Assembly: GCA_946122785.1 (NCBI GenBank)
Contig: CAMGYJ010000005.1
Span: 60,648,200 to 60,712,199, forward strand
DNA from: Linum tenue
Lineage: Eukaryota > Streptophyta > Magnoliopsida > Malpighiales > Linaceae
Direction: 5' to 3'
DNA: 64,000 nucleotides
Both the position numbers and the translations under genes were made by a program. Shown piece by piece: positions 45,379-64,000 of the stretch. The notes beneath the pieces were generated by a model. The model was not told where the DNA came from. It saw only the letters and a list, made by a program, of their open reading frames with translations, and searched no databases. How positions within the stretch are numbered: the first letter of the stretch is position 1; each line of letters opens with the position of its first letter.

Positions 45379-46783
45379 ATGGCACGGTTACCTACCTTGT
45401 CTCCAACACGTAGGCTTCATGTGGTAGCAGCAATTAGCTCTTTCCTAAACTTGATTATGATTTACGTAAATTTAGGTATGGGATTAGCCGAGCTCATAGA
45501 AAAACGAAAATCTAACCCAAGACTTGGTAGGCAGCCCATGGACACCGACTTAGTTAGACATTATGACAGGCAAAGACACCTTGAACTGGCAATCCGTAGG
45601 AGTGACACATATGCGTATGATAGGGTTAGGATGAACCGAACCCTATTCAACTCTTTCTGTCACCTTCTTATTACTGTAGGAGGATTGAAAAGAACTAGGA
45701 ATGTTGACATAGATGAGATGGTTTACACCTTTCTTCGCACTATTTCTCACAACGAGAAGAACAGAACTTTAATACTCAATTTGCGACGATCGGGAGAGAC
45801 CATTTCTCGCTCTATACATCGGGTGCTAAGGGCTGTCATTCGCCTAAATGATATGTTAATGAAGAAGCCTGTCCCGATTCCTGAAAACTCTACCGATAGT
45901 AGATGGAAATATTTCAAGGTTGGTTTGGACATTTTTTTAAACTGGTTTACTCAATACTTAAAAGTTGGTTTCATTCGATCTTTAAAATGGTTATTCTTGT
46001 GTGTTATAGAGTTTTTTAGGAGCCCTAGATGGTACTCATGTACGTGTTCGTCCATTGAAAGAGGACCGATCTAGATATCGAGACAGAGAAGGGAAACTTT
46101 CTATGAATGTGTTGGGGGTGTGCACTCCAAATTTGGAGTTCATCTACTGTCTTTCCGGGTGGGAAGGTTCTGCCCATGATGGAAGGGTCTTACGAGATGC
46201 CTTGACAAGGCAAAATTGTTTTACTGTCCAACAAGGTAAATGATAGTATTAGGTTAACGTACAAGTTTACTTAATAAAAAAAAGAAACCCCTCTAAACAA
46301 ACTGATTTTGGTGTGTATTGTTTTACTATAGGCTGTTACTATCTTTGTGATGCTGGTTATGCAAATAGTCCTGGATTTTTGACCCCATACCGTGGTCAAA
46401 GGTACCACCTCAAAGAATGGGGTGTTAATCCACCTGAAACTGCCGAAGAGTTCTATAATATGAAGCATTCATCAGCTAGGAATGTCATAGAACGCATTTT
46501 TGGGATTTTAAAAATGCGATGGGCTATTCTAAGAGACTCATCATGGTTCACTCCGCGTGAGGTTGCTCGAATTGTGGTTGCATGTTGCATTATACACAAC
46601 TTCATCAAGAGGGAACAAGGAGCCGATCAATTTGAGAGAACATATCAAGATGAAGAACCGGAACATCATCCTTCAACTGGGGTTGAGACAGTTGATACTT
46701 GCAGCATGCATCCTTGTCCGGAATGGACACAATATAGGAACCAAATAGCAATTTCCATGTGGGAAAATAGGCCTAATAGATGA
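45379..46783 (+). CDS. PIF/Harbinger DDE transposase
   Basis: Cuts and rejoins transposon ends. Three exons with GT-AG introns in phase: 45379-45918, 46010-46235 and 46332-46783, giving 405 residues. The N-terminal helical part (RNVDIDEMVYTFLRTISHNEKN, GETISRSIHRVLRAV) is typical of HARBI1-like nucleases. The catalytic triad is complete: Asp187 in GALDGTH, Asp262 in CDAGYAN, Glu309 in NVIERIFG. Further family marks are GWEGSAHDGRVLRDAL, KMRWAIL and CCIIHNFI. The ATG directly follows an AT-rich leader with a polypyrimidine-tract/AG-like sequence, so a leader intron is possible. Partner of the downstream MYB-like protein, which in this superfamily is needed for nuclear entry and end binding. 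Confidence 0.93.
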
Positions 46784-49964: not shown

Positions 49965-50639
49965 AGTGTGGTAATCTCAATATATATTCTCAAAGAAGGG
50001 GAAACAGAAGGAGGAAGAGGGAAAAAAACTTGTCTTCTGTCTCCTGTCATTTACTCCTCCGCAATGAAGAACACCGAATGCAAAAAGAAAGAAAAAGAGG
50101 AAGAAGATCGGAATTAATTCACAAACAAATACTAAAACACAAAAGATGCAAACTCAACTCACCTAGATCTGTCCCCTCTTTGACAATATGGAGCATCATC
50201 GATTTTGAGGCCGATAAAAGAAAAAAACAGAAGGAAGGAGCAGCTTGAGAGTAGAAGGATTTGGAGCCTCACCGAATTTGAAGTGGGAGGCTGCAATTTA
50301 TTCATCGATTGTTGGAGAAAAAAATGAAGAACAAGAGAAGAAATGAGATTTAGATCTGGAAAAAGAATTTTGGAAGAGAGAAAGGAAGAAAGAGAAAAGA
50401 GAGAGGAAGAGAAAAGTATGCTTTTTCTCTTTCATCCATTAAAAGACAACACATATAAATACTGGAAAAAATAAAAAAAAGGAAAGAAATCAAATTTCAA
50501 AAATCGGACAAAAATGCCCCTCCTCACTCCACGTGCAGCCCAACAATATAATAATGCCATCCCTAGATCTACGGTCCAGATTTAATACTGATAGGTCAGT
50601 AACCAATGGTTACTGACCCTATCTGCTGCCCGTGGGTTG

Positions 50640-51131
50640 CGGTTACCAATGGGTAATACCCATCTCGTGCATCTAACATTACAATACCTAAAATTTTACA
50701 TGAAAATTTTCAATTATAACATTAAACGCTCAAACTATATCATGAAATCGACAAAGAAACAATCATTCTTAATATGGCTCACAACATATCCTAAAACAAC
50801 CATTAATCCATAAGATAGAGTACAATGTAATCCAAATTATTATTCTCTGACTCGAATATATCTACTAAGCAATAACTAACTAACAAAATCTTGCTAGCAC
50901 GAGGGAAAAAGTGAAAGAGTGAAGGGAGAGCCGAGGAAAATTAATTACGTTCTGATTTGGGTGGCCACTCAATTGCATTTCTACTAATTATTTTGTAGTT
51001 CCCCTCACTATCATCCATAGATTACTATTTGATCCATTAATTTGATATATGTGAACAAAATTCTTGATGGACGGGTATGAGTATGGCGTGGGGAGGCTAA
51101 AATCATATTCGCCACATACCCTTTCCTTATT
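50640..51131. other. AT-rich spacer without a gene
   Basis: No open frame or repeat structure of note. Confidence 0.4.
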
Positions 51132-52077
51132 GGGGTCGTTTGGATGAATCGATTGAAAGATGACATAATTTGACCAATAGTCTCATTTTACAAATCGAAA
51201 CATTTAAACGAGCCAATTCAAATTGTCTACCCACCATCCCAGACAATTGTAATTGCCTCAAAATGAGTCAATTTGAAATTCTCCAGGTAGAATTGATTGA
51301 TCTAAATTTTGTTGCCAAATGGATCAATTTGACCAGATTGTCTCAAACTAAAATAATTTGGTGAAATTTATCCGTTAGAATATCTCATCCAAGCCCGTTA
51401 GAATGCCTCATCCAACTGACCCCTTTATTTATGTTTTCTACCATTCCTCCTCCCTCACTCTGCTGAAAACTCCAAACCATGTCCGCCGATTCCAGCCAAT
51501 CTCCTCTGATTTCCTCCGCTCGATTTTGACAACCCATGCCGCCACCGCCTTGCTCGCCGCCAAATGCTAGTCTTTTATCGGAAGGCAAGCTCGAGATCCA
51601 GAGCGACCTTGACTCTAACTTCGCCGGGCTCAACCGCCACATCAACAATGCGTGAGATTCTCATTTGTAACGGGATCCTCCATGATGCCATTTATGAATC
51701 CTCTTACGAGTGCAACGTTGTTCAAGCCCAGTCCAGTAACTTGTCGACCTGTCTCCAGATCTAGTGCGCCAAGTCAAGGAACTAGACAATAGACTCAACT
51801 CATGGGAGAATAAACCAATTATTAGCTTTTACAAATTGTTTATTTTTAAATGAGTTTCTGATTTTATTGTTGAATCAATCTTCTTGATTTTTTCATTTGA
51901 ATCTTTGTTTACTTGCTTTCTTTACATAATACCTTTTGCCAATTGTCTCGTGTGTTTCTTGGTGCTTTGATTTTGATTTCCAAGGGTTATGCTCACGGGG
52001 AGAAGAGCAAGGGTGGAGAAGTCTTCGTCGACAAAGAACTCTGGTGGCAGTAGTTGTGGAGAAGATGTGTGTTGTTC

Positions 52078-53756
52078 TTAGGGGTCGTTTGGATTAGAGT
52101 TTTCTATGAGGGATTTTAACACAATCACTTACAATGAGAGATTTTAATAGAATCACCCGTTTAGAAAAGATCTAAACGATTAGAGATTTTAAACATTAGT
52201 AAATTCAGAAACCCTCAATTGTGGGATTTAAAAATAGATGATAATCATAAGCTATTTGTAAATCTCTCATTTTTATTCCCTTCTTTCCAATACTTACCCT
52301 CGTCCCTACTTTCGTCTTCCGTCTTCCTTTTCTCACTCACCACCAGAATTCCCAGTCCCCACCGCTTCCACCACTCCCACACAACACCAGCGAGTGCCTC
52401 CAGCTAATTCTTTCCGGTTGAATCGCATGCCGCCGCAGGAGCCGAACAAGCGATCGAGAACCAAGCGAACCAGATTTCGCTCGACCAGAGGAGAGGCGTA
52501 ATTGAGCGGAGAAGGCAGTAGACGCGACCGGAATTCGATGCTCGCCGAACCAGAATCCTCTTCCACGATCATTCATTCTCCCACCAACCACCAGTCTAGA
52601 CAAAGAAGAAGCTCGTGAGAGCGGTCAAGAACTAGGCAAAGAGATCTGGGTTCGTTCTTTGGGATGGGAACTTCTGGTTTCATTGGGGCAATCTCTGGCA
52701 TGGTGATTTCCGCCGATTTCTGGGCTTGTTCCTCGATTTTCTCCTGATTGCTTGTCGATGATTGGGTGTTCTTTGGGAGGGGCAATTTTTGGGTTCGTTC
52801 CGGCAAATCGGCTACTGAAGAGACAAAGAACCCGATGATGGGAGGGAAAGCGAGGACATGCAGCAGCAGTGAGGGATCCACTGCCCTTTTCCAGCGACAA
52901 TTGCTTCCGCAAACGATTCACATCCTCCCTTCCCATCTTCTTCGATGAGACTTGTCCTTCCAGATCGAAACCGTTTTCTGGTTTCTTTCAATTGATGGTG
53001 TAGATCTGATTGCCTAAATCTTCGATTATTGACGGTGATATGACTGGGCGACGGGGAAATGGATTGCTCTCCGAGCTTCCGTGGGATGCAAGCTTGTCAA
53101 CCCGCGGGTTGACCCGGACCCGGTCGAGCTAGTAAGTCAAGGGTTAATGGGTCAACCGTTTTAGCCCGGTTTGGCCCGGAAATATAGAAAGAGTCATTAT
53201 ATTGCACTTATCCTCATAAATTATATCAAATCTTATCTAACAGTTATAACATATAATATTAAACCAAAATAACATATCGTACTTAGATCCAACATATAGT
53301 GAAAATTCACACACACTTATATAACATAAATATTCAAATGTTCAACTTAGTATTCCAAAGATTGAGTTAGGCGAAAAGAAAAATTGGAAAATAGGCGCAT
53401 TTCGCAAACTAAAGAAAAAATGACACAATTTGACCTCCAACCCGGTACCTAATAGCGGTCGGCCCAGCGGGTGCGTGCGGCCTGTTTTTCTCACCGGGTC
53501 AGGGTCAAATTGGGTCGACCCGTGGGTCAACCCGCGGGTTGACAACCTTGGTGGGATGCCTACGACGTGGAAGACGATGAACAAAGAGGGCAACCTAGAA
53601 ATTTGGCGTTTCTCATTAAAAACCCACATATTTAAACAAACAAAGGATTTGATATAAATCCTTAATCACAAATATCTGGTTTTTTAGTTGAGTGATTTGA
53701 GGCAAAATCTCTCACAAATCTCTCAAATTAAAAACTTGAATCCAAACGACCCCTTA
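52078..53756. mobile_element. Harbinger-type non-autonomous element with TTA duplication
   Basis: The element is 52081-53753. Both ends are ggggtcgtttggatt in inverted orientation, followed by gagagatttt-type repeats, and TTA flanks both sides. There is no transposase. The interior (52280-53080, resuming 53560-53640) is GC-richer and gene-like but unrecognised, and it is interrupted by a smaller MULE at 53090-53550. The shared termini suggest it could be moved by the 44421-48790 transposase. Confidence 0.85.
53081..53559. mobile_element. Small Mutator-type MITE, 9-bp TSD
   Basis: The element is 53090-53550, flanked by GTGGGATGC (53081-53089 and 53551-53559). Its ends carry ttgtcaacccgcgggttgac, itself palindromic around CCGCGG, in inverted orientation. 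461 bp, non-coding. Confidence 0.88.
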
Positions 53757-53979
53757 GTGTATTTTGTTTTTCTTCGCTTCTTCATCGAATTTCTTGATTT
53801 ACGGGGTTTGATTTGGTTTCTATGGAGGCCATGAACTAATTTTTGTTTGAATGATTCTAGGTTGGCTTCCCTAGCTTCTAACTAAAATGGTTGATCTTTG
53901 TTGGTCTGTAATTTTTTGTCCTTCTGGTTACAAAGGGTAAGAGAGGAATTTGGGGCAAATAAGATAGTTCATCATATAA

Positions 53980-54405
53980 TATATTACAGGGCTAATACCA
54001 CTGGGAAACCCGAACTATTAACTTTGTGTCATTTGTGTCCTAAAGTATCTGATATGACATTTGTGTCCTAACCTATTATAATTGTGTGTCATTTATGTCC
54101 TAACGATTTCGTTGACCGTTATAGATAACGGTTGACCAAACGGACATCACATATTTGCTGACGTGGCAAAAAAGTAGATGCCATGTAGATGCCACATCAT
54201 TAAATATTATTTTTGCTCAAAATTTTAATTATTTAAAATATAAAAAAGTAAAAGAAAGCGGCCTAGCTGTCTCCCTCTGCCTCAGTTCTTCAATCCTCAA
54301 CCAAAAGCGGCCCCGCCACCGGAGAAGATGATTCATCTCCGCCTCTGTTCATTGATCCCTCTTGCCTCTATTCTTCGATTGGCCTAGCGCCGCAACCTGC
54401 CACAT

Positions 54406-54450
<45 letters not shown>

Positions 54451-55318
54451 TGGATTTGGCGGTGACGGAGGAAGAAGGGAAGAATGGTCGATGTCAAGAG
54501 GAGGGAGGGTGCGAGAGGCGGATGAAATTGATGAGAGAAGAAAGAGAAGGGGTTCCAGTCTTTGGTGGCCTGTGGCGATGAAGCTAATTTCGAACCAGGT
54601 TGGAGGAAGAAGAAGTTCGATTTCTGAGGATTTATGGTTTGGGTATTCTGTTATTTTGGGTTGCAGCTCGACCCCCTTCCAAATCGCCGACGAGGAGAAA
54701 GGGAGGACCATCGCTTTCAATCAATAAAAATTCAACAGATTTATTGGCGGCGCAATCTCCATCGTCACCAATCCCACCAGATTCTGGGACGCCCAGTCCG
54801 CCTTCAGCGCCTCCCTCGGCTACTCCGCCTAGTCCGATTCCGATGCCTTCAAGCATCGGGCACCCGTTCGGCAAGAAGCTCTTCGGGGAGCACAATCTCA
54901 TCTCCGAGCGAGGGTTGAAGGGAGAGTGAGAAAGAGCGGGGTTGAGTGGAGCGACTCTTTGGTCTTCGTCGATTGCACACCCCCATGGCAAGAAAAGTTT
55001 CTCTAGGTTTCGCCGACAATGGCAGCGGCGCGATGAAGGGTAAGCGGGGTCGAGTGAGGAGAGAGGAGACCAAGAGATTTTTGTTTATTTTATTTTCTGT
55101 TAGTTTATTTATTTTTTTATGAAAAATAAATAATAAAATGTCCACGTCAGATGCCACATAAGCGCTAACTAGAATTTCTGTTAAAAACTAACAACCAACG
55201 CTAGTCAACTCTAACGGAAAAATAGTTTAGGACACAAATGCCATATCAAATACTTTAGGACACAAATGACACAAAGTTAATAGTTTGGGTTTCCTAGTGG
55301 TATTAGCCCTATATTACA
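53980..55318. mobile_element. Mutator-like element, 9-bp TSD, gene-like cargo
   Basis: The element is 53989-55309, flanked by TATATTACA on both sides. Inverted termini start gggctaataccact(g/a)gga and are closely similar for about 100 bp, more weakly to about 230 bp. They include repeated cattTgtgtcctaa units and a gttgaccgtt .. tgacgtggca segment on the left. The GC-richer interior (54250-55070) contains a (CT)n run and a piece reading FWDAQSAFSASLGYS in one frame; it looks like captured exon DNA, but I do not recognise it. No transposase. Confidence 0.9.
54408..54447. repeat. (CT)n microsatellite
   Basis: About 19 uninterrupted CT units inside the MULE. Confidence 0.95.
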
Positions 55319-55463
55319 AACCAAATAAGATAATTTGGGACAAATTTCTAATAAAATTGTATAATTTTTCTAAAATGGGACTTTTAACACAACTTGCCTC
55401 TTTTTAGAAATGCTCTATCAGACTATCCCTATAAAAAAAATGTTCTATCCAAACGACCCCTTA

Positions 55464-56014
55464 GAACTTTTAATAAAGTCAGTTATGGAATATTCATTGA
55501 AATTCGAACTCTCTCATTGATAAGCTTATCAAAGGAAGATATCAACCCAAGTGTTTTATTTTGAAAGCAAAAATGTGATGGGAACCTAGAGGAAAGACCT
55601 CAAGTTCGGATGTCAATGGATGACATGATCAGGGCCTTGAGAACTTCCAACTTTGAATCTTATAGTCATTTTATGGATTGGAATTCCAAAGTTTTCAATC
55701 TTATCACCAAGATTCCAGAACCTGGGGAAAAGACCTTATTGAATTGATGTTGATCACCACTAAAGAACAACAACAGATCATGTCTATTCCTCTTTCTTCC
55801 TCCATACAATAGTATATTCTATGTTGTTCAGGGAGCAAGAATGAAAAATACTCATTTGCTTCGGGATAAATTATGGAACAAAATCAAAATTAAAGAAGAA
55901 ATTTGTGGAAACATAAGTAAGGACTTTTGTTGGAAGAAGTTGGGGAGCTAAATTTACCATGGAAATTTAAGGTGTTCTTCTAGAAGATAGTTCATAATAC
56001 ATAATCGATTGGAG
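55464..56014 (+). pseudogene. LINE remnant, zf-RVT region, left part
   Basis: Heavily stopped LINE sequence. The recognisable end is NISKDFCWKKLG followed by a region equivalent to the 'PWKFKVFFWKIVHN' block of plant LINE zf-RVT modules. It is interrupted by the MULE at 56024-57512. Confidence 0.6.
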
Positions 56015-57521
56015 TAAATATTAGGCAAAATCCATCGGTATATCCAAAACTTTGACGTTTGTGACAATAATATCCACTTTTGGAGAAATACCAATAATAG
56101 CCAGAATTTTGAAAGATTAATGACAAATATAGCCATTTTCGTTACATAATTTGACGGCGTTAGTGACGCCGTTAGTCAAATTAATAGAATGCTTACGTGG
56201 CTGCCAACTCACAGGACACATCATCGACAACTCAACAACACTTTTTACATGGATGCCATGTCATATATTAATTTAAAAATGATAAAAACATCAGAAAATT
56301 TTCACATCCTCTCTCCTCTCCCACCACTCGATTGCGTCGGTGGCCGCCTCCCTTATATCCAACTCTTCCTCTTCTGCGAGTCTGCGACCCCAACCGGAAC
56401 GTCTTCCTCCTTCTACACAACTGTCAACCTTCTCTCCAACTCTTCCTCTTTCCCTATTTCTCACCACCTCTTCCTTCCCTTCTTCGATCCCCTCTCTTCT
56501 CCAACTTCTACCCCCACCTCTGATTTGACTCACCGCCCTCTCACCTATCCAATCGCCTCCAGATCCAATTGCCTCCTCCGCCCCTCAGTGTTGCCGTCTC
56601 CTCCCTCTATCGCCCAAATCTCCACCTCCTCGTAGTCGAAATATCCATCCCCTTCACTCCGCACAAGTGCGAGCCGCCTTCCTGCTCCGTCGAGACCAAT
56701 TCCCAGGATCCCCTCACGTTCTTCCGCGACAGGCGGTGGCGAGAACGAAATGGAGGGAGAAATCCGACTCATTTTCCAACTACCGCACTTCTCACTCTGC
56801 CTCTGCTCAAATCTGAACATCCAGAATCCAATGTGGAGGCCGCTAGGGAAATCTGCCAGCTCGCCAAGAAGATTCCAAAGCGGTCACCATCGCTAAATCG
56901 ACAGCTTCGTCTCCCAATCACACCCATCATCATCTCTCTCCAGATTGAAATTGGATCCACCGATGATTTTGAAGCGGGGGTAGATTGAGAAAATTATTCG
57001 TGGCTTTTGTATGGATTGGATGAAACTATTGAAGATGGTGGTGGTACTGGAGAAAGGATGGATTGATGGCAAAGAGGAGCACTCTTCGTTTACCAGAGCT
57101 TGAGAAGGAAGAGGAAGAAAAAAATCGATCATGGAGAGAGGGAAAGAACGCGATGAAGATGAGCGTCGGTTGGATGAAAGAGAAGGGGAAAGAATCGAGA
57201 AGAGAGAGAACTTGAGATTATCAAGATATTCAAATCGGAGAGCGATGGAGAAGCACTATTTGGTGGAATGTCGCGGGGTTGGGCGCATCTAGTCTAAGAC
57301 CCTCATTGTTAAATTGTTCTATAAAGCTAAGAATCTTGAATGAATTTTTTATTGACTAAAAAATTGACATGTCAGCTTTTCTGTTAGTACAGTCAGTACG
57401 TTAACTAACACCGTCAAACAATTGGACGGAAGTGGCTATTTTTGGTATTTCGCCAAATGTTGCTATATTTGGCCAAACCGTCAAAGTTTTGGCTATACAG
57501 GTGTATTCGGCCTAAATATTA
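56015..57521. mobile_element. Mutator-like element, 9-bp TSD, with a copy of flanking DNA
   Basis: The element is 56024-57512, flanked by TAAATATTA (56015-56023 and 57513-57521). Inverted termini ggcaaaatccatcggtatat / ggccgaatacacctgtatag, with ccaaaactttgacg in both, are similar for over 100 bp. No transposase. The interior at 56290-56990 is pyrimidine-rich and gene-like (VEAAREICQLAKKIPKRS in one frame); its origin is unknown. It includes a 129-bp segment (57217-57345) identical to host DNA at its right border. Confidence 0.9.
57217..57345. repeat. 129-bp perfect copy of the right flank
   Basis: Identical base for base to 57518-57646, starting attatcaagatattcaaat and ending atcttgaatgaat. 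The outer copy overlaps the last four bases of the MULE target duplication; the inner copy lies 167 bp inside the element's right end. Confidence 0.97.
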
Positions 57522-58400
57522 TCAAGATATTCAAATCGGAGAGCGATGGAGAAGCACTATTTGGTGGAATGTCGCGGGGTTGGGCGCATCTAGTCTAAGA
57601 CCCTCATTGTTAAATTGTTCTATAAAGCTAAGAATCTTGAATGAATCGGTTGTTCAAAGTGCTAAAGGAGGCTGACGGAACTTGAGAAATTATGTTCTCT
57701 CCTTTAGTTCTTCTGGAAGAAAAGAAATAGTTTTCTTCTTAACAATAGTCAACAAGGTCTTGGGAGAATGGAAGGTCTTTTCTAGAGCTGACTACCATAT
57801 TGAGGATTTTCTAGAAGTACAAGGAAGGGATAAGGAGCCTTGCCACAGTGCAGGCAAAATAAGATGTAAGTGGACTAAACTATCTATTGGAGTCTTCAAA
57901 TTGAACTTGAATGTTGGCCTTAACAGCAGAGGTGAATTGGGATTAGGATGCTTAATGAGAGATTGGAATTGAAGAGTGATCTTTGCTGGAAAAAAAAAAG
58001 AGTGAAAAGGTGTTGTGGCCGCATGATATTTCAAAAGGGATGGCTATCCTTTTGGCCTACAGAAGGCGATGAAGTCGAGCATAATTCCTATCATGGTTGA
58101 ACATAATGCAAAAACTCAGTGAATTTGTCAAAGGGATAGGCAGATAGCATAACAGAGCTTGATATTGTGTGTAGGAATACCAAAAAGCTTGAGAATTATT
58201 TGAATATTATCAATTGGAGGCTCACATATAGGAAGGAAAACAATGTTGCTTATATGATTTGACTCATCTATTTACCCCTCACCCCATATGTAAGAGAAAA
58301 ATTCTTTAATGATTGTGTTCCTTCTCAAATATTTGATGTTGTAACCCTAGGTCCCTTGATTGATTTCAATGAAATCCCATCAGTTCTTTCTAAATGAGAG
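57513..58400 (+). pseudogene. LINE remnant, right part (zf-RVT end and RNase H)
   Basis: After the MULE the same LINE goes on with an RNase-H-like region: IRCKWTKLSIGVFKLNLNVGL and LGLGCLMRDWN at 57860-57972. It ends with the recognisable tail TPYVRE-like, FNDCVPSQIFDVV and IDFNEIPSVLS (58280-58390). Numerous stops. Confidence 0.7.
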
Positions 58401-60030
58401 ATTATATAACTTATGGCAGGACAATGAATAATATTTTTCAGGATGACAAATAATACCGATGACACCTAAATATGTGTTATTTAGTCCTCATATCTAGGTC
58501 CTTTTTGAGTCATTTCAAGTTTGCATTGGTTGATATGTTGTCAAATATATCCTTATTTCTTTATGCGAAGAATATATTGTTATATTAGGATGTGGTAGAT
58601 GATATGTACAATTAAGGTACCAAAAGGGGCACAAGTGTAGAAAAATGGGCAAAAATGGAGATCATGGCAGAAAGTGCCAAGATTGCAGCCTTGAGTGCCA
58701 GGATCCTAACCATGAACTCTAAAGCCAAGGGTCTGAACTGGAGCACCAAGATCGAGGCCATCAGTGCCAAGATCCCAGCCGCGATCTTCTGCCTCTTGCC
58801 AGTGAACTTGACCTCAAGATCGCAGCCTCAAGTTCAGGGCCACGAACTTTAGAGCCAAAGGTGTGAAATTTCGGAGTAGCTAACACGGGAGAAGTAGAGA
58901 GTCTCTATAGTCGATTCACAAACCTCGTCTTCCAAGTCCGTAACAAAGATCGCGGCCGTGACACCCCGGATCACGCCCGCGATGTTAAGCCGCAAACTCC
59001 ACATATTCCAAGGAGTAAATGGTGACCATAAATATCACAGCCTCTACCCCAAAGATCTCGGTTGCGATCTTCTGCACCTTGCCCTTGAACTTTACCTCAA
59101 GATCACAACCCTCTAGATCATGCCCGCAATCTTTTGCCGCTTGCTCGTGAACTTGCATGTGTCTGCATAATTCTATAAATAGGGGACTCCTTCCTCTGGA
59201 GAAGTTAGCTTTTGGGAGATTTTTTTTATTCTAGAGAGAGAATCTTAAGGAAGGAGAAGAAGAGAAGGAGGAGCTAGAAGGAAGGAGCCATCTCCCCCAT
59301 CAAGTCTTCATAATCATTTTCTTCAATGTTACTCTTCCCTTATTTATGGACTAGTCCTCTAAGGTACTAGGGGTTAAAACCCCCAAACCCTAGATTATGT
59401 TAATGATGTAGATGTATGAATTATGTTAGGGTTTATGAATGAATATGTTTGTCTAGTGATTTTATTGCTTCATTTATGCTTGATTATGCTTGGGTAAGTC
59501 GCCCTACTCTTCCCTATTAGCCTGCAACTGAGCCATCGATAGGCCAGAGTTTTAGGATTAGACTGGGTAGCACCAATTGGTAGATTAAGGGTAGATGATT
59601 GTTTATAGGGTCTTGTAGTGGACGAGGCGAATGTATCCTTGCTATAAGAACGCCTTCCAAGATGATGCTCTAGAGGTTCGCAAAGGCACAAATTTGACTC
59701 TTTAGTATGCACGATAGGTAGAACCTATTGAAATGAGCTAAACTCATAATGCCTACATAAGTGAGCCTTAACTAAGGTGACAATGGGTCTTTGGGGGACA
59801 CACTCAAAGGCATGGGATAACTACAAAGGCCCACAAGATTAGAGAGATCACACACCATATCCGATAAACCTAACATAGTTAGTCATTTGCATGTTAGACC
59901 TAAACTAGGGCGAGAGAGTTACCCCGAGTACCTCTTCTTATCTATAGATCTTTAGTTTAGGAATCATCAACTTCCCACCTGCTATGTAACATGTTGACTA
60001 GATAACGACCGAGGTTCGAGGCTAAGTAGT
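58401..60030 (+). other. LTR-like DNA with a TATA box and GA-rich leader
   Basis: No gene. ctataaatagggg at about 59172, followed by a GA-rich leader (59225-59290) and aaaccctagatt, is the usual look of a plant LTR promoter and R region. Repeats of the gatcgcagcc/gatcgcggcc type occur at 58650-59160. Paired termini were not found. Its junction with the LINE at about 60030 is abrupt. Confidence 0.4.
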
Positions 60031-60040
60031 CTAGGATATC

Positions 60041-61150
60041 GTGAACCTTTGGAATACGACTGAGCCACTTTACTACTACGAGCCGGAGTTTGTGAATGGT
60101 TCGATACGGATTCCACGGGAAGTTGTTGAGGAAGGGGCAAAGCGTTGGGAGAATTGTTTAGTTGGTCAATTCATTGATCGGCCGGCTTCGATATCTTCGA
60201 TAAGGTACTGGGCTAACTGGTTGTGGGGCAAGGAGGGTGTGGTCGAGGCTTCTTGGATGGGCAGAAGGCTGGTGATGTTTCAATTCCCTTCGGCTGAGAT
60301 ATGTCAGTGGGTATTTGAAAACAGACCTTGGCATCACAGGGAAAATCTCTTGTTTCTTCGGAAGTGGGAGCCTGGGATCAGTCCTATGAAGATCGACAAC
60401 ACTGCGCTGCCGCTGTGGATTAAACTCTCAAATCTGCCAATGGAATTAACCTCGAAGGAAGGTTTAGGAAGAGTGGCTAGTTCGCTGGGGAAACCGCTAT
60501 GTATGGATAAATCTACAACCCAGGGTCGTAAAGTAGGGTTTGCCCAAATCTGTGTTGAGGTCAAGGCTACTGCTAAGAAGGTCACGAAGTTGAGTGTTAC
60601 ACCTGATGGTTTGCCAGAGCTCTTTATTGATGTGGTGTATTGCCATATGCCAAAGGTTTGTGAGAAGTGTGGTTGTTTTGGGCATAGCTGTACTAAGGTA
60701 GTGGAAGAACCGCAAAAAGTATGGGTGAAGCATAATCCGTTGATAGGTGAGACTCCATCTAAGAAGGCTTCAAAAATAGAGGTACAAGAAGTGGTAAGTT
60801 CGAACTTGAATTCAGAAGTTGAAGGATTAGTAGCTCATAATAAGGAACAAGAGGTTGCTGAAGTGATGCCAGAGCACAGGGCAGGGAAAGAGATTGCTAT
60901 CACAATGAGTGCGCAAAGTCCTTCTCCAAAGAGTGGCTTAGTGGACAAGGATGGTTTCACTCTGGTTGTCAATAGGAAGCATAAGCAGAAGATATGGGTT
61001 GGCCCGGGGTCTAGTAGCAAGGGGATCCAAAGCTCTACTGATAGAAGTTCAGGGAGTCTGCATCATGCCAATATTAATACTAGGCCTGTCTTGAATTGTC
61101 CTCCATCTCCTCCTAAAGGGACAGGTAGGGGGAGGAAGAGAGGTAAATGA
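60041..61150 (+). CDS. LINE ORF1 (DUF4283 + zinc knuckle), 5'-incomplete
   Basis: Nucleic-acid-binding protein of an L1-type plant LINE. The frame is open from a stop at 60032 (first codon used here is GTG), with no ATG near the expected start, so the N-terminus is probably lost at the junction. DUF4283 runs over roughly residues 25-170 (SIRYWANWLWGKEG, VMFQFPSAEICQWVFENRPW, LRKWEPG, LPLWIKLSNLP, LGRVASSLGKPLCMD). A CX2CX4HX4C-type knuckle follows (CEKCGCFGHSC, about residues 206-216), then a basic, variable tail ending GRGRKRGK. The stop codon overlaps the ORF2 start as ATGA, so ORF2 probably depends on re-initiation. Confidence 0.88.
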   Translation: MNLWNTTEPLYYYEPEFVNGSIRIPREVVEEGAKRWENCLVGQFIDRPASISSIRYWANWLWGKEGVVEASWMGRRLVMFQFPSAEICQWVFENRPWHHRENLLFLRKWEPGISPMKIDNTALPLWIKLSNLPMELTSKEGLGRVASSLGKPLCMDKSTTQGRKVGFAQICVEVKATAKKVTKLSVTPDGLPELFIDVVYCHMPKVCEKCGCFGHSCTKVVEEPQKVWVKHNPLIGETPSKKASKIEVQEVVSSNLNSEVEGLVAHNKEQEVAEVMPEHRAGKEIAITMSAQSPSPKSGLVDKDGFTLVVNRKHKQKIWVGPGSSSKGIQSSTDRSSGSLHHANINTRPVLNCPPSPPKGTGRGRKRGK

Positions 61151-64000
61151 AGTTGCTCAGTTGGAATGTCAGGGGATTCAACTCCCCTGACAAGCACTCA
61201 GCTGTTCTTGAGCAGTTGAGGATGAAAAGAATTGATATTGTAGGGATACTGGAAACTAGAGTTACTAAAGAGAATAGTAAGAAAATAATTGAAGGTGTTT
61301 TTTCTGCTTGGCAACATACTGATAACTATGATACTTCTAAATCAGGTAGGGTTTGGATATTCTGGAGGGCAGGTATGAAGGTTACTCGTATAAATGAAGG
61401 GGAGCATTATTTACAGATTCTAGTAGAGGATACTGAACCATTCGTAGTAGTTTTTGTATACAGTTCAAATAAAGAGGTGGAGAGGAATAGACTCTATCAA
61501 GAGTTATTACTCAGAAGAGATGCAAGCACTCTTATGGTTTTCATGGGGGATTTTAACGCCATTGCTGAGATTAATGAAACTTCAAATGTGTAGGAGATTA
61601 CTCAGAGTATGCTGGATTTCAGGGGATGGATCAAGGATATGGAACTGGTTGATCACAAGGTATCAGGGAACTGGTTTACTTGGTGGAATAAGCAGCAGGC
61701 TAATCCTATAGCCCGCAGGATTGATAGAGTTTTGGTTAACGAGGCATGGTTGGAGAAGATTAAGGAAAGCTCATCTTACACAAATCGTCCTGGTATATCA
61801 GATCATTGTGGGTTGATATTGGACACTGCACCTGGGTTGAAAACACTTCCTAAACCGTTCAAATACTTCACCTTCTGGCAGGCTCACCCTAACTATGTGA
61901 ATCTAGTAGAGCAAGCTTGGAAAAAGAGGGTGGAGGGGTACCCTTCGTATATTTTCTATGGTAAGCTCCATAGTGTTAGGCAGGCTCTGAAGCAATTAAA
62001 CAGAACTGTTTATTCAGACATTTCCAGCAGAGTGAAGGCTGCAGCAGAGGTTTTGGAGACTGCTCAGAATGAAGTTCTTCTTAATCCCAATGCAGAATCA
62101 GTGGCAAAGGAAAAACAGGTGTGTATGGAGTACCTTGAGCTAAGAAAGGTAGAAGAGCAATTCTATAGGAAGAAGGCTAGAACTCAAGCTATACAGGAGG
62201 GTGACTCGAATACTGCTTACTTTCATAAAACTGTAAAAATTAAAACTCAAAGGCAGCAGATTACTCGAATGCTGAATGACAGGGGTGAGATTAAAACTGA
62301 TGTGCAGAGTATTGGTAAGATTGCTGTGGAGTTTTATGAACAGCTGATTGGAGTTGAGGATTCTAATGTGGAGGTAAAGGAAGAGTCTTACTATCACGGT
62401 TTAATCCAGCACAGGCTGTCTGAGGATGGAAAGAATGAGTTGATGAAGGGTATTACAAGAGCTGAGATCAAGCAGACCTTTCATTCCCTTGGCAAGGATA
62501 AGGCCCCAGGGCCAGATGGATTCCCAACTGAATTTTACAAAGCACACTGGTCTCTTATAGGCACTGAAGTTGAAGAAGTAGTCCTTTCTTTCTTTTCTAC
62601 TGGATTTATGCCCTCTTCTGTGAATAGTACCATTTTTACACTGGTAGCAAAAATTCCTAGTTCTGAAAAGATGAAGGATTATAGACCGATAGCTTGCTGT
62701 AATACATTGTATAAGGGTATTTCCAAACTGTTAGCTAATAGACTTGCCCTGGTTCTTCCCAGTGTGATAAGTAGATCTCAATCTGCTTTTATTAAGGGGA
62801 GGTCTATAAGTGACAATATTCTACTGGTGTCAGAATTGGTTAGAGACTACCATAGGAAGAATATTACTCCTAGATGTGTGGTGAAGATTGATATAATGAA
62901 GGCGTTTGACTCAGTAAACTGGAAGTTTCTGTTCAGTATTATGAAGGCAATGGGGTTCCCAGAGGGGTTTCTTAAATTGATTTTTGCTTGTGTCACCACA
63001 CCTACTATTAGAGTTGCAGTCAATGGAGGGTTGTGTGGAAATATAAGGGCTGGTAAAGGATTAAGGCAGGGGGATCCATTATCCCCCTGCCTGTTTACAA
63101 TAGCAATGGAAGCTTTGGATTGTTTGACTAAGAAAGCTATGGTGGATAATCAGATCCCTTACCATCCTCGTTGTAAACCTCTTATGATTTCCCATTTATG
63201 TTTTGCGGATGATTTGATGATGTTTACCAATGGGTCAATAAGAGGGGTTGCTGGCATTAGAAGATTAATGGATAGTTTTTATAAGCTGTCTGGCTTAAGA
63301 TGCAACCCAGCAAAGTGTCAGCTTTTTTGTGCTGGTATTCCTAAGGAAGAAATGCTTGCTATTTCTGGATTTACTGAATTCCCTCTGGGAACACTTCCTG
63401 TGAGGTACTTAGGAGTCCCACTTATTCAGGGAAACTCACTAGGCAAGATTGTAAAGTGCTGGTGGATAAGATAACACAAAAGCTGAGAAGCTGGAGGTCA
63501 AAGCTGCTAAGCTATGTTGGGAAAATACAACTTATAACAACTGTCATCTCTAGTACTCTTCAATACTGGCTCAATATATTCTTATTACCTAAATTTGTTA
63601 TCAAGGAGGTGGGAAGATTGTGTAATGAGTTCTTGTGGGACTCTGCTGAGGATGGTAGTAGAAAGAAAGCAGTCATGGCCTGGGACAAGTTGGCTACTCC
63701 TAAAAAGGAGGGTGGACTTGGAATTAGAAACTTTGGAGTATGGAATAAGGCGTGTGTATTGAGGCATTTATGGGAGATCCTTACTCTAGGGGGGTCTATT
63801 TGGGTTGCATGGATTTCAAGGTACAGGCTGAAAGGTAGAAGCATCTGGGATATCTCAATTGTTTCTGCTGGGACATGGATTTGGAAACGGGTGTTGAAAT
63901 GCAGGGAGATAGCTTATCCTTTTGTTTCTGGGATTGGGAGCAGTACTCTGTGGCAGGTGGAGCAAATGAAAAGGTTATCGGTGTCCAGGGTGTGGAATGA
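61147..64000 (+). pseudogene. LINE ORF2 (endonuclease-reverse transcriptase), runs off the window
   Basis: The ATG at 61147 overlaps the ORF1 stop. The AP-type endonuclease shows LSWNVRGFN, ILETRV, FMGDFNA, RIDRVLVN and SDHCGL. A TAG at 61591-61593 is the only break before RT. RT shows KDKAPGPDGFPTEFYK, DYRPIACCNTLYK, SQSAFIKGRS, KIDIMKAFDSVNW, GLRQGDPLSPCLF and the active-site FADD (63202-63213). At about 63430 one base appears to be missing; the frame then continues open to the window edge into the zf-RVT part (VLVDKITQKLRSW, EFLWDS, AWDKLATPKKEGGLGIRN). Two lesions in about 2.85 kb make it a young but inactive copy. RNase H, if present, lies beyond the window. Confidence 0.9.

What the first reader, a model, noticed from the sequence alone, without database searches (positions are those of the whole stretch)
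57217..57646. A MULE contains a perfect 129-bp copy of the host DNA that borders it
Bases 57217-57345 inside the Mutator-like element equal 57518-57646 outside it. The outer copy starts within the target duplication (its last four bases) and is ordinary LINE sequence continuous with the left side of the insertion, so the host copy is the original. The element therefore acquired flanking DNA after landing at this site, or was repaired from it. Pack-MULE gene capture is well known, but a local, mutation-free example with the donor still adjacent is rarely so clear. It points to template switching during gap repair.
Basis: seen in the sequence. Interest (0 to 1): 0.75.

Follow-up and report, generated by a model that had tools for sequence, protein, structure and literature searches.

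The report
Jumping gene patched with neighbouring DNA
A plant transposon at this spot lost a short internal stretch and was patched with a 129-base copy of the host DNA lying right beside it, a clear but ordinary example of break repair using nearby DNA as filler.

Summary
The element (56024-57512) is a non-autonomous MULE with 9-bp target duplications. In the 692-Mb own genome the block was found at 8 places, the inner and outer copy in four local segmental copies of this locus on contig C5 (8 of 8 candidates scored). Four LINE relatives run through the empty site with the outer copy in place, so the host copy is the original. None of 35 fetched family copies carries the block. They have an AT-rich stretch there (44-58 bp in 11 measured copies), so the block replaced MULE sequence. 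Six extra bases sit at the left junction.

It fits published classes: repair-mediated duplications by capture of proximal DNA (Pace 2009, vertebrates) and Pack-TIR gap filling (Tan 2021, animals). Which repair pathway acted cannot be settled. The nearest relative (93%) carries a different filler, plastid rpoC2, in the same AT-rich stretch. New member of a known kind.

The parts
56024..57512 (+). Non-autonomous Mutator-like element (MULE), 1489 bp
   Evidence: 9-bp TSD and about 80-bp TIRs at 80% identity; family of dispersed copies, 16 of 29 with both ends showing an exact 9-bp TSD at the predicted ends
56015..56023 (+). Left target site duplication TAAATATTA
   Evidence: read; present in all four segmental copies
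57513..57521 (+). Right target site duplication TAAATATTA
   Evidence: read; present in all four segmental copies
56024..56103 (+). Left terminal inverted repeat
   Evidence: inverted repeat I2
57433..57512 (-). Right terminal inverted repeat
   Evidence: inverted repeat I2
57211..57216 (+). Six junction bases CTTGAG, neither MULE-family nor block; possibly copied from host 57678-57687
57217..57345 (+). Captured (inner) copy of the 129-bp host block, standing where other family copies have an AT-rich stretch (44-58 bp in 11 measured copies)
57518..57646 (+). Original (outer) copy: last 4 TSD bases plus LINE sequence
   Evidence: LINE relatives continuous across the empty site
57678..57687 (+). 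Host 10-mer GAACTTGAGA matching the left junction (possible second template)
   Evidence: background 50 of 49,990 10-mers occur in 57522-58100
55480..56023 (+). Left part of the degenerate LINE relic carrying the insertion
   Evidence: alignment to L073; domains of L073
57522..58409 (+). Right part of the same LINE relic
   Evidence: alignment to L073; domains of L073

Best explanation
After the MULE had inserted into a LINE relic, the element lost an AT-rich stretch about 170 bp inside its right end, and error-prone, template-copying repair filled the gap with host DNA from just outside that end. Most likely path: a double-strand break in or next to the stretch; the left broken end was extended on the host DNA, first perhaps a few bases at 57678-57687, then 129 bases from the TSD edge (57518-57646); the extended end was joined to the right broken end. 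Later the whole locus was duplicated segmentally, giving four copies. Shown: the duplication, its direction, the replaced stretch (by comparison with the family), no other donor found in the assembly, and capture before the segmental split (unless gene conversion spread it). Inferred: the break, the polymerase steps, the polarity. The confidence given is for post-insertion, repair-templated capture from the flank by any pathway; for the internal-break path alone I would say about 0.5. The first two rivals below are other pathways within the same class.
For: Exact 129-bp pair. Block found at 8 genome places only, 4 loci x 2; absent from 35 of 35 fetched family copies. Eleven copies aligned on both sides have 44-58 bp at this spot (sequences). 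Four LINE relatives are collinear across the joined flanks (three of them aligned base by base). Segmental copies: 0 mismatches of 8223 between window and A, 1 of 8223 between B1 and B2, 0.50-0.56% between the groups, all with both block copies and both TSDs. Short junction filler with a 10-bp match 31 bases beyond the donor. Same anatomy as published repair-mediated duplications: median 147 bp, donor under 5 kb, microhomology plus deletion plus filler the commonest proximal class, 10 of 39 (PMC2671141 passages).
Against: No allele of this same insertion with the AT-rich stretch intact was found, so the ancestral state comes from other family copies. The right junction shows no microhomology against the family form (..CATA|TTTTT). 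The 10-mer match was picked from many junction words searched over 3 kb each side; 9 of its bases also occur twice on the other strand (55599, 58827), so it is only suggestive. Hairpin potential of the AT-rich stretch is weak (median z -0.68, 13 of 35 below -1; closest relative -0.34), so a fragile site is not demonstrated.
Confidence: 0.87

Rival explanations
1. Excision-linked abortive gap repair (a pathway within the same class): the MULE left one chromatid, exposing a host end at the TSD. The left end was copied back from the sister chromatid as far as the AT-rich stretch, switched onto the exposed right host end (hence the start inside the TSD), copied 129 bp, and returned to the sister to finish the right terminus.
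For: The block starts at the sixth base of the 9-bp TSD, which an internal break does not predict but a trimmed excision end does. Rice excisions often leave filler (58 of 94 putative events, 1-123 bp; PMC4423477 passages).
Against: Needs two switches and restoration of an intact right TIR and TSD. Only about 44-58 bp was lost, whereas Tan et al. expected larger deletions with breakpoints towards the termini for excision-driven repair (PMC8277862 section 8). The start inside the TSD could be coincidence.
Confidence: 0.25
2. Replication fork stalling in the AT-rich stretch with two template switches (FoSTeS/MMBIR-like; a pathway within the same class): a forward jump of about 300 bp, 129 bp copied, and a jump back; no double-strand break needed at the start.
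For: The sequence outcome would be the same; the stretch is very AT-rich; the donor is in the same orientation and close by.
Against: No feature here distinguishes it, and short extra filler is a described mark of polymerase theta end joining (PMC10923293 passages).
Confidence: 0.2
3. The MULE carried the block before inserting, and landed beside a matching LINE copy by chance or by homology.
For: None found.
Against: No other occurrence of the block was found in the genome. The nearest relatives of the right flank outside the four loci are 66-72% identical over parts of it. The inner copy begins inside the TSD of this very insertion.
Confidence: 0.02
4. Assembly artefact (mis-joined or collapsed reads).
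For: Four near-identical local copies raise the chance of assembly trouble; window and A are identical over 8223 aligned bases.
Against: Both groups of copies, 0.50-0.56% apart, carry the identical structure. The block replaces rather than repeats MULE sequence and has extra junction bases, which a mis-join would not readily produce.
Confidence: 0.04

Closest known systems
[quoted passage not shown]
   Same: Insertion inside a transposable element, donor within 5 kb, about 150 bp, with deletion and short filler at the junction.
   Different: Described in vertebrates; here a plant MULE. Here the donor starts at the element's own TSD, with 172 bp between the two copies.
Single-copy Pack-TIRs formed by gap filling (Tan et al. 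2021, PMC8277862)
   Same: TIR element with a small internal gap filled from nearby host DNA; strong cis bias.
   Different: Described in animals; their filter dropped cases whose parental copy has a TE within 100 bp, so a case like this would be missed. They write that application to plant Pack-MULEs is worth exploring.
[quoted passage not shown]
   Same: Deletion plus insertion copied from the immediate flank, with microhomology of about 3 bp on average to prime synthesis.
   Different: Here 129 bp, probably longer than typical (my judgement), and not experimentally induced.
Pack-MULEs of rice and other plants
   Same: MULE carrying host DNA between its TIRs.
   Different: The captured block is a piece of LINE relic, not a gene, and the element has not been shown to move since.

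Membership tests
Mutator-like element (TIR-MULE) | 9-11-bp target site duplication | tested here: met
   9 of 9 bases in the window; of 29 family copies with both ends in hand, 16 have an exact 9-bp TSD at the predicted ends and 27 reach the score cut-off for 8-11 bp within 6 bp of them (no shuffled control)
Mutator-like element (TIR-MULE) | Long terminal inverted repeats | tested here: met
   83-nt arms, 80% complementary
Mutator-like element (TIR-MULE) | Mobilised by a MURA-type transposase | not tested
   the two ORFs of 130 aa or more in the element are not recognisable as transposase by eye; an autonomous partner was not sought
Repair-mediated duplication | Inserted sequence inside a repeat, absent from the repeat family | tested here: met
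   35 of 35 fetched family copies lack it
Repair-mediated duplication | Single donor within 5 kb on the same chromosome, more than 50 bp away | tested here: met
   172 bp lie between the copies; no other donor found in the own genome apart from the locus's segmental copies
Repair-mediated duplication | Breakpoints with deletion, filler or microhomology | tested here: met
   loss of an AT-rich stretch (44-58 bp in 11 relatives) and 6 extra bases; microhomology weak: none at the right junction, at most GAA at the left
Repair-mediated duplication | Orthologous site without the duplication | not tested
   no related species genome available; only family copies and LINE relatives were used
Pack-MULE | Captured host gene fragment between the TIRs | tested here: inconclusive
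   the block is LINE sequence; of the rest of the interior only ORF 56569-56988 and a 48-aa piece of it were scanned, with no Pfam match at E 0.1 or less; other interior frames were not scanned

The most novel reading that the evidence does not exclude
The AT-rich stretch about 170 bp inside the right end of this MULE family is a recurrent break-and-fill site. Two sister copies (93% identical) each took a different filler there: adjacent LINE DNA here, plastid rpoC2 DNA in the C2 copy. If general, this would be a native entry route by which plant MULEs acquire foreign DNA, by transposition-independent gap filling.
Probability: 0.2. Interest if true: 0.6.

Novelty: new member of a known kind. 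Interest (0 to 1): 0.3.

Why it matters
How MULEs pick up host DNA is called not yet understood in one plant paper (PMC3310237 of 2012, passages), and Tan et al. 2021 leave open whether gap filling applies to plant MULEs (passages). This locus is a clean plant case: donor still adjacent, no other donor found in the assembly, ancestral state inferred from 35 relatives, and a sister element with a different filler at the same place. It is one case, so it illustrates the mechanism but does not prove it general.

Tried and rejected
Hairpin-driven fragility of the AT-rich stretch: folding energies against dinucleotide shuffles gave median z -0.68, 13 of 35 below -1, so not claimed. Other local captures in the family: direct repeats of 30 bp or more at 85% or more were sought in 37 loci (L005-L039, L060, L061). 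Nine loci gave 12 pairs. Set against the element ends, 10 pairs lie wholly inside or wholly outside the element; for 2 (L015, L029) the left end was not in hand. The right flanks held in the 35 family loci were only 261-1507 bp, so this says little about more distant donors. A first comparison of the flanks with the window's own LINEs found no convincing match, and Pfam found nothing in the read-through relic pieces; LINE identity came later from L073. Rfam and ARAGORN found nothing in the window. The copy at C2:2747893 (L060) shows no right end in the 3.6 kb fetched, so it says nothing about the junction. Pre-insertion capture and single-locus assembly error were considered and rejected.

Literature: searches (open-licence PMC library only). 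I noticed no title or abstract in their listings on a plant MULE filled from its own flank; the listings were capped, so this is not proof of absence. Passages of the 2026 review PMC13317346 give a Pack-CACTA model of capture and, in the places shown, no MULE gap filling. Hsia and Schnable 1996 (MuDR) and Rubin and Levy 1997 (Ds) on interrupted gap repair are recalled, not seen.

Full report
Observation. The 129-bp identity is exact: 57217-57345 equals 57518-57646. The MULE runs from 56024 to 57512, with TSD TAAATATTA on both sides (56015-56023 and 57513-57521) and TIRs of about 80 bp at 80% identity. Related copies are dispersed in the genome. One search scored 40 of 1835 candidates and listed 36 copies besides this locus's four; I fetched 35 (L005-L039; C4:60048898 was left out). 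Of these, 29 had both ends in the fetched stretch; 16 of the 29 have an exact 9-bp duplication at the predicted ends, and 27 reach the cut-off for 8-11 bp within 6 bp of them (no shuffled control). So the element is a TIR-MULE. No transposase was recognised by eye among its ORFs of 130 aa or more.

Where the block occurs. The window lies at C5:60648200-60712199 of a 692-Mb assembly; that it is a plant is my inference from its genes and repeats. A search with the 129-bp block gave 8 matches, all 100%, with 8 of 8 candidates scored (the tool warns that very common words are skipped). They are the inner and outer copy in four loci on C5. These four are segmental duplicates: window 50631-64000 at 60564949 (16 mismatches, 26 gap columns in 13,381), 53511-64000 at 60737209 (54 and 62 in 10,519) and 55777-64000 at 60760563 (43 and 48 in 8,253). 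In a four-way alignment of about 8.2 kb, window and A have 0 mismatches, B1 and B2 have 1, and the two groups differ by 0.50-0.56%. All four hold both block copies and both TSDs. Hence the capture predates the split of the groups, unless gene conversion homogenised them. These copies could also be partly haplotype duplicates in the assembly; I could not test that.

Direction. The flanks have no close relative outside the four loci. The search with 57522-58100 scored 11 of 11 candidates, and the other matches are 66-72% identical over parts of it; the search with 55600-56023 gave one other match, 71% over about 133 bases. Four of the loci (L070-L073; L070 and L071 look like near copies of each other) align to the joined flanks in one stretch across the empty site, at about 58% identity. 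Three (L070, L072, L073) were aligned base by base and run through the TSD with the block region in place. L073 encodes zf-RVT and RVT_3 domains. The outer copy is therefore LINE sequence in its original place and the inner copy is derived. One difference: these relatives have roughly 30 bp more, close to the right of the insertion site. That gap lies inside the block, in both copies, so it predates the capture.

What was replaced. The block is absent from all 35 fetched loci and the sequence left of 57346 in them is not the block. It is AT-rich and in 30 of 35 ends in TCATA, TCATG or TCATT (counted by eye). In the 11 copies that one search aligned on both sides with no large insertion, 44-58 bp separate the two aligned parts. 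In the window these are gone, and CTTGAG plus the block stand there. At the right junction the family reads ..CATA|TTTTT and the window ..GAAT|TTTTT, with no microhomology. At the left, GAACTTGAGA recurs in the host at 57678; nine of its bases also occur on the other strand at 55599 and 58827. In a control over the first 50 kb of the window, 50 of 49,990 10-mers occur in 57522-58100, 9 of 49,990 in its first 201 bp, and 3 of 1,059 10-mers starting with GAA occur in 57522-58100. Since I searched several junction words over 3 kb each side, I take this as a hint of a second template, not proof.

A second filler in the nearest relative. The C2 copy L005 (93% identical over 881 bp; TSD TTAAATAAA) keeps the AT-rich stretch but has about 230 bp more there (by eye). 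Its reverse strand reads as plastid RNA polymerase beta'' (rpoC2): query residues 3-79 match chain 8qma_B at E 6.7e-28. Pfam gave no match to the same piece. Two sister elements thus carry different fillers in one short stretch. With two cases, and the relative examined because it was the closest, this suggests a break-prone site but does not show one. Folding does not support a strong hairpin.

Mechanism. Break in or near the AT-rich stretch, loss of that stretch, extension of the left end on the neighbouring host DNA, and joining: this is synthesis-dependent repair with template switching, as in polymerase theta end joining in Arabidopsis, where fillers often map to the flank and microhomology of about 3 bp is used (PMC10923293, passages). 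The start inside the TSD is the one feature that favours an excision end as template. Against it, the loss is small and the right terminus intact, which in the animal survey argues for internal breaks (PMC8277862, section 8).

Comparison. Pace et al. 2009 (outline and passages) describe 824 human duplications of up to 619 bp (median 147) inside transposable elements with donors within 5 kb, and name synthesis-dependent strand annealing as the pathway. Tan et al. 2021 (outline, passages, section 8) describe 370 animal Pack-TIRs; 160 of 281 unique ones have parental copies within 15 kb, and the median gap is 4.6% of the element. Here the lost part is about 3-4% of the element. The rice survey reports excision fillers of 1-123 bp (PMC4423477, passages); maize Ds elements carry fillers too (PMC3260210, passages). 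The finding is thus a clear plant member of a known kind.

Verdict. Observation confirmed and interpretation supported, with the corrections that it is a replacement, that it is fourfold by later segmental duplication, and that the class is known.

Noticed in passing
L005, within G000:C2:49055655-49055942: The nearest MULE relative carries about 230 bp of plastid rpoC2-like DNA in the same AT-rich stretch where the window has its block.
   Followed up: partly
C5:60564949-60578314, 60737209-60747694, 60760563-60768796 versus window 50631-64000: Four local segmental copies of this region, two of them identical over 8.2 aligned kb although 134 kb apart; recent duplication or retained haplotypes in the assembly.
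   Followed up: partly
53982-55316: Another element-like structure with 96-nt inverted arms at 93% lies about 0.7 kb left of the MULE.
   Followed up: no
L006 1429-1480 and 2967-3018: 52-bp direct repeat at 94% just outside both ends of the MULE copy in L006 (element 1506-2961), longer than a TSD.
   Followed up: no
46313-46783: ORF with a DDE_Tnp_4 domain, PIF/Harbinger-type by recall; neighbouring ORFs may belong to the same element.
   Followed up: no
G000:C2:2747893-2749447 (L060): A second relative of the MULE interior (89-90%) split by about 600 bp and without a right end in the stretch fetched.
   Followed up: no
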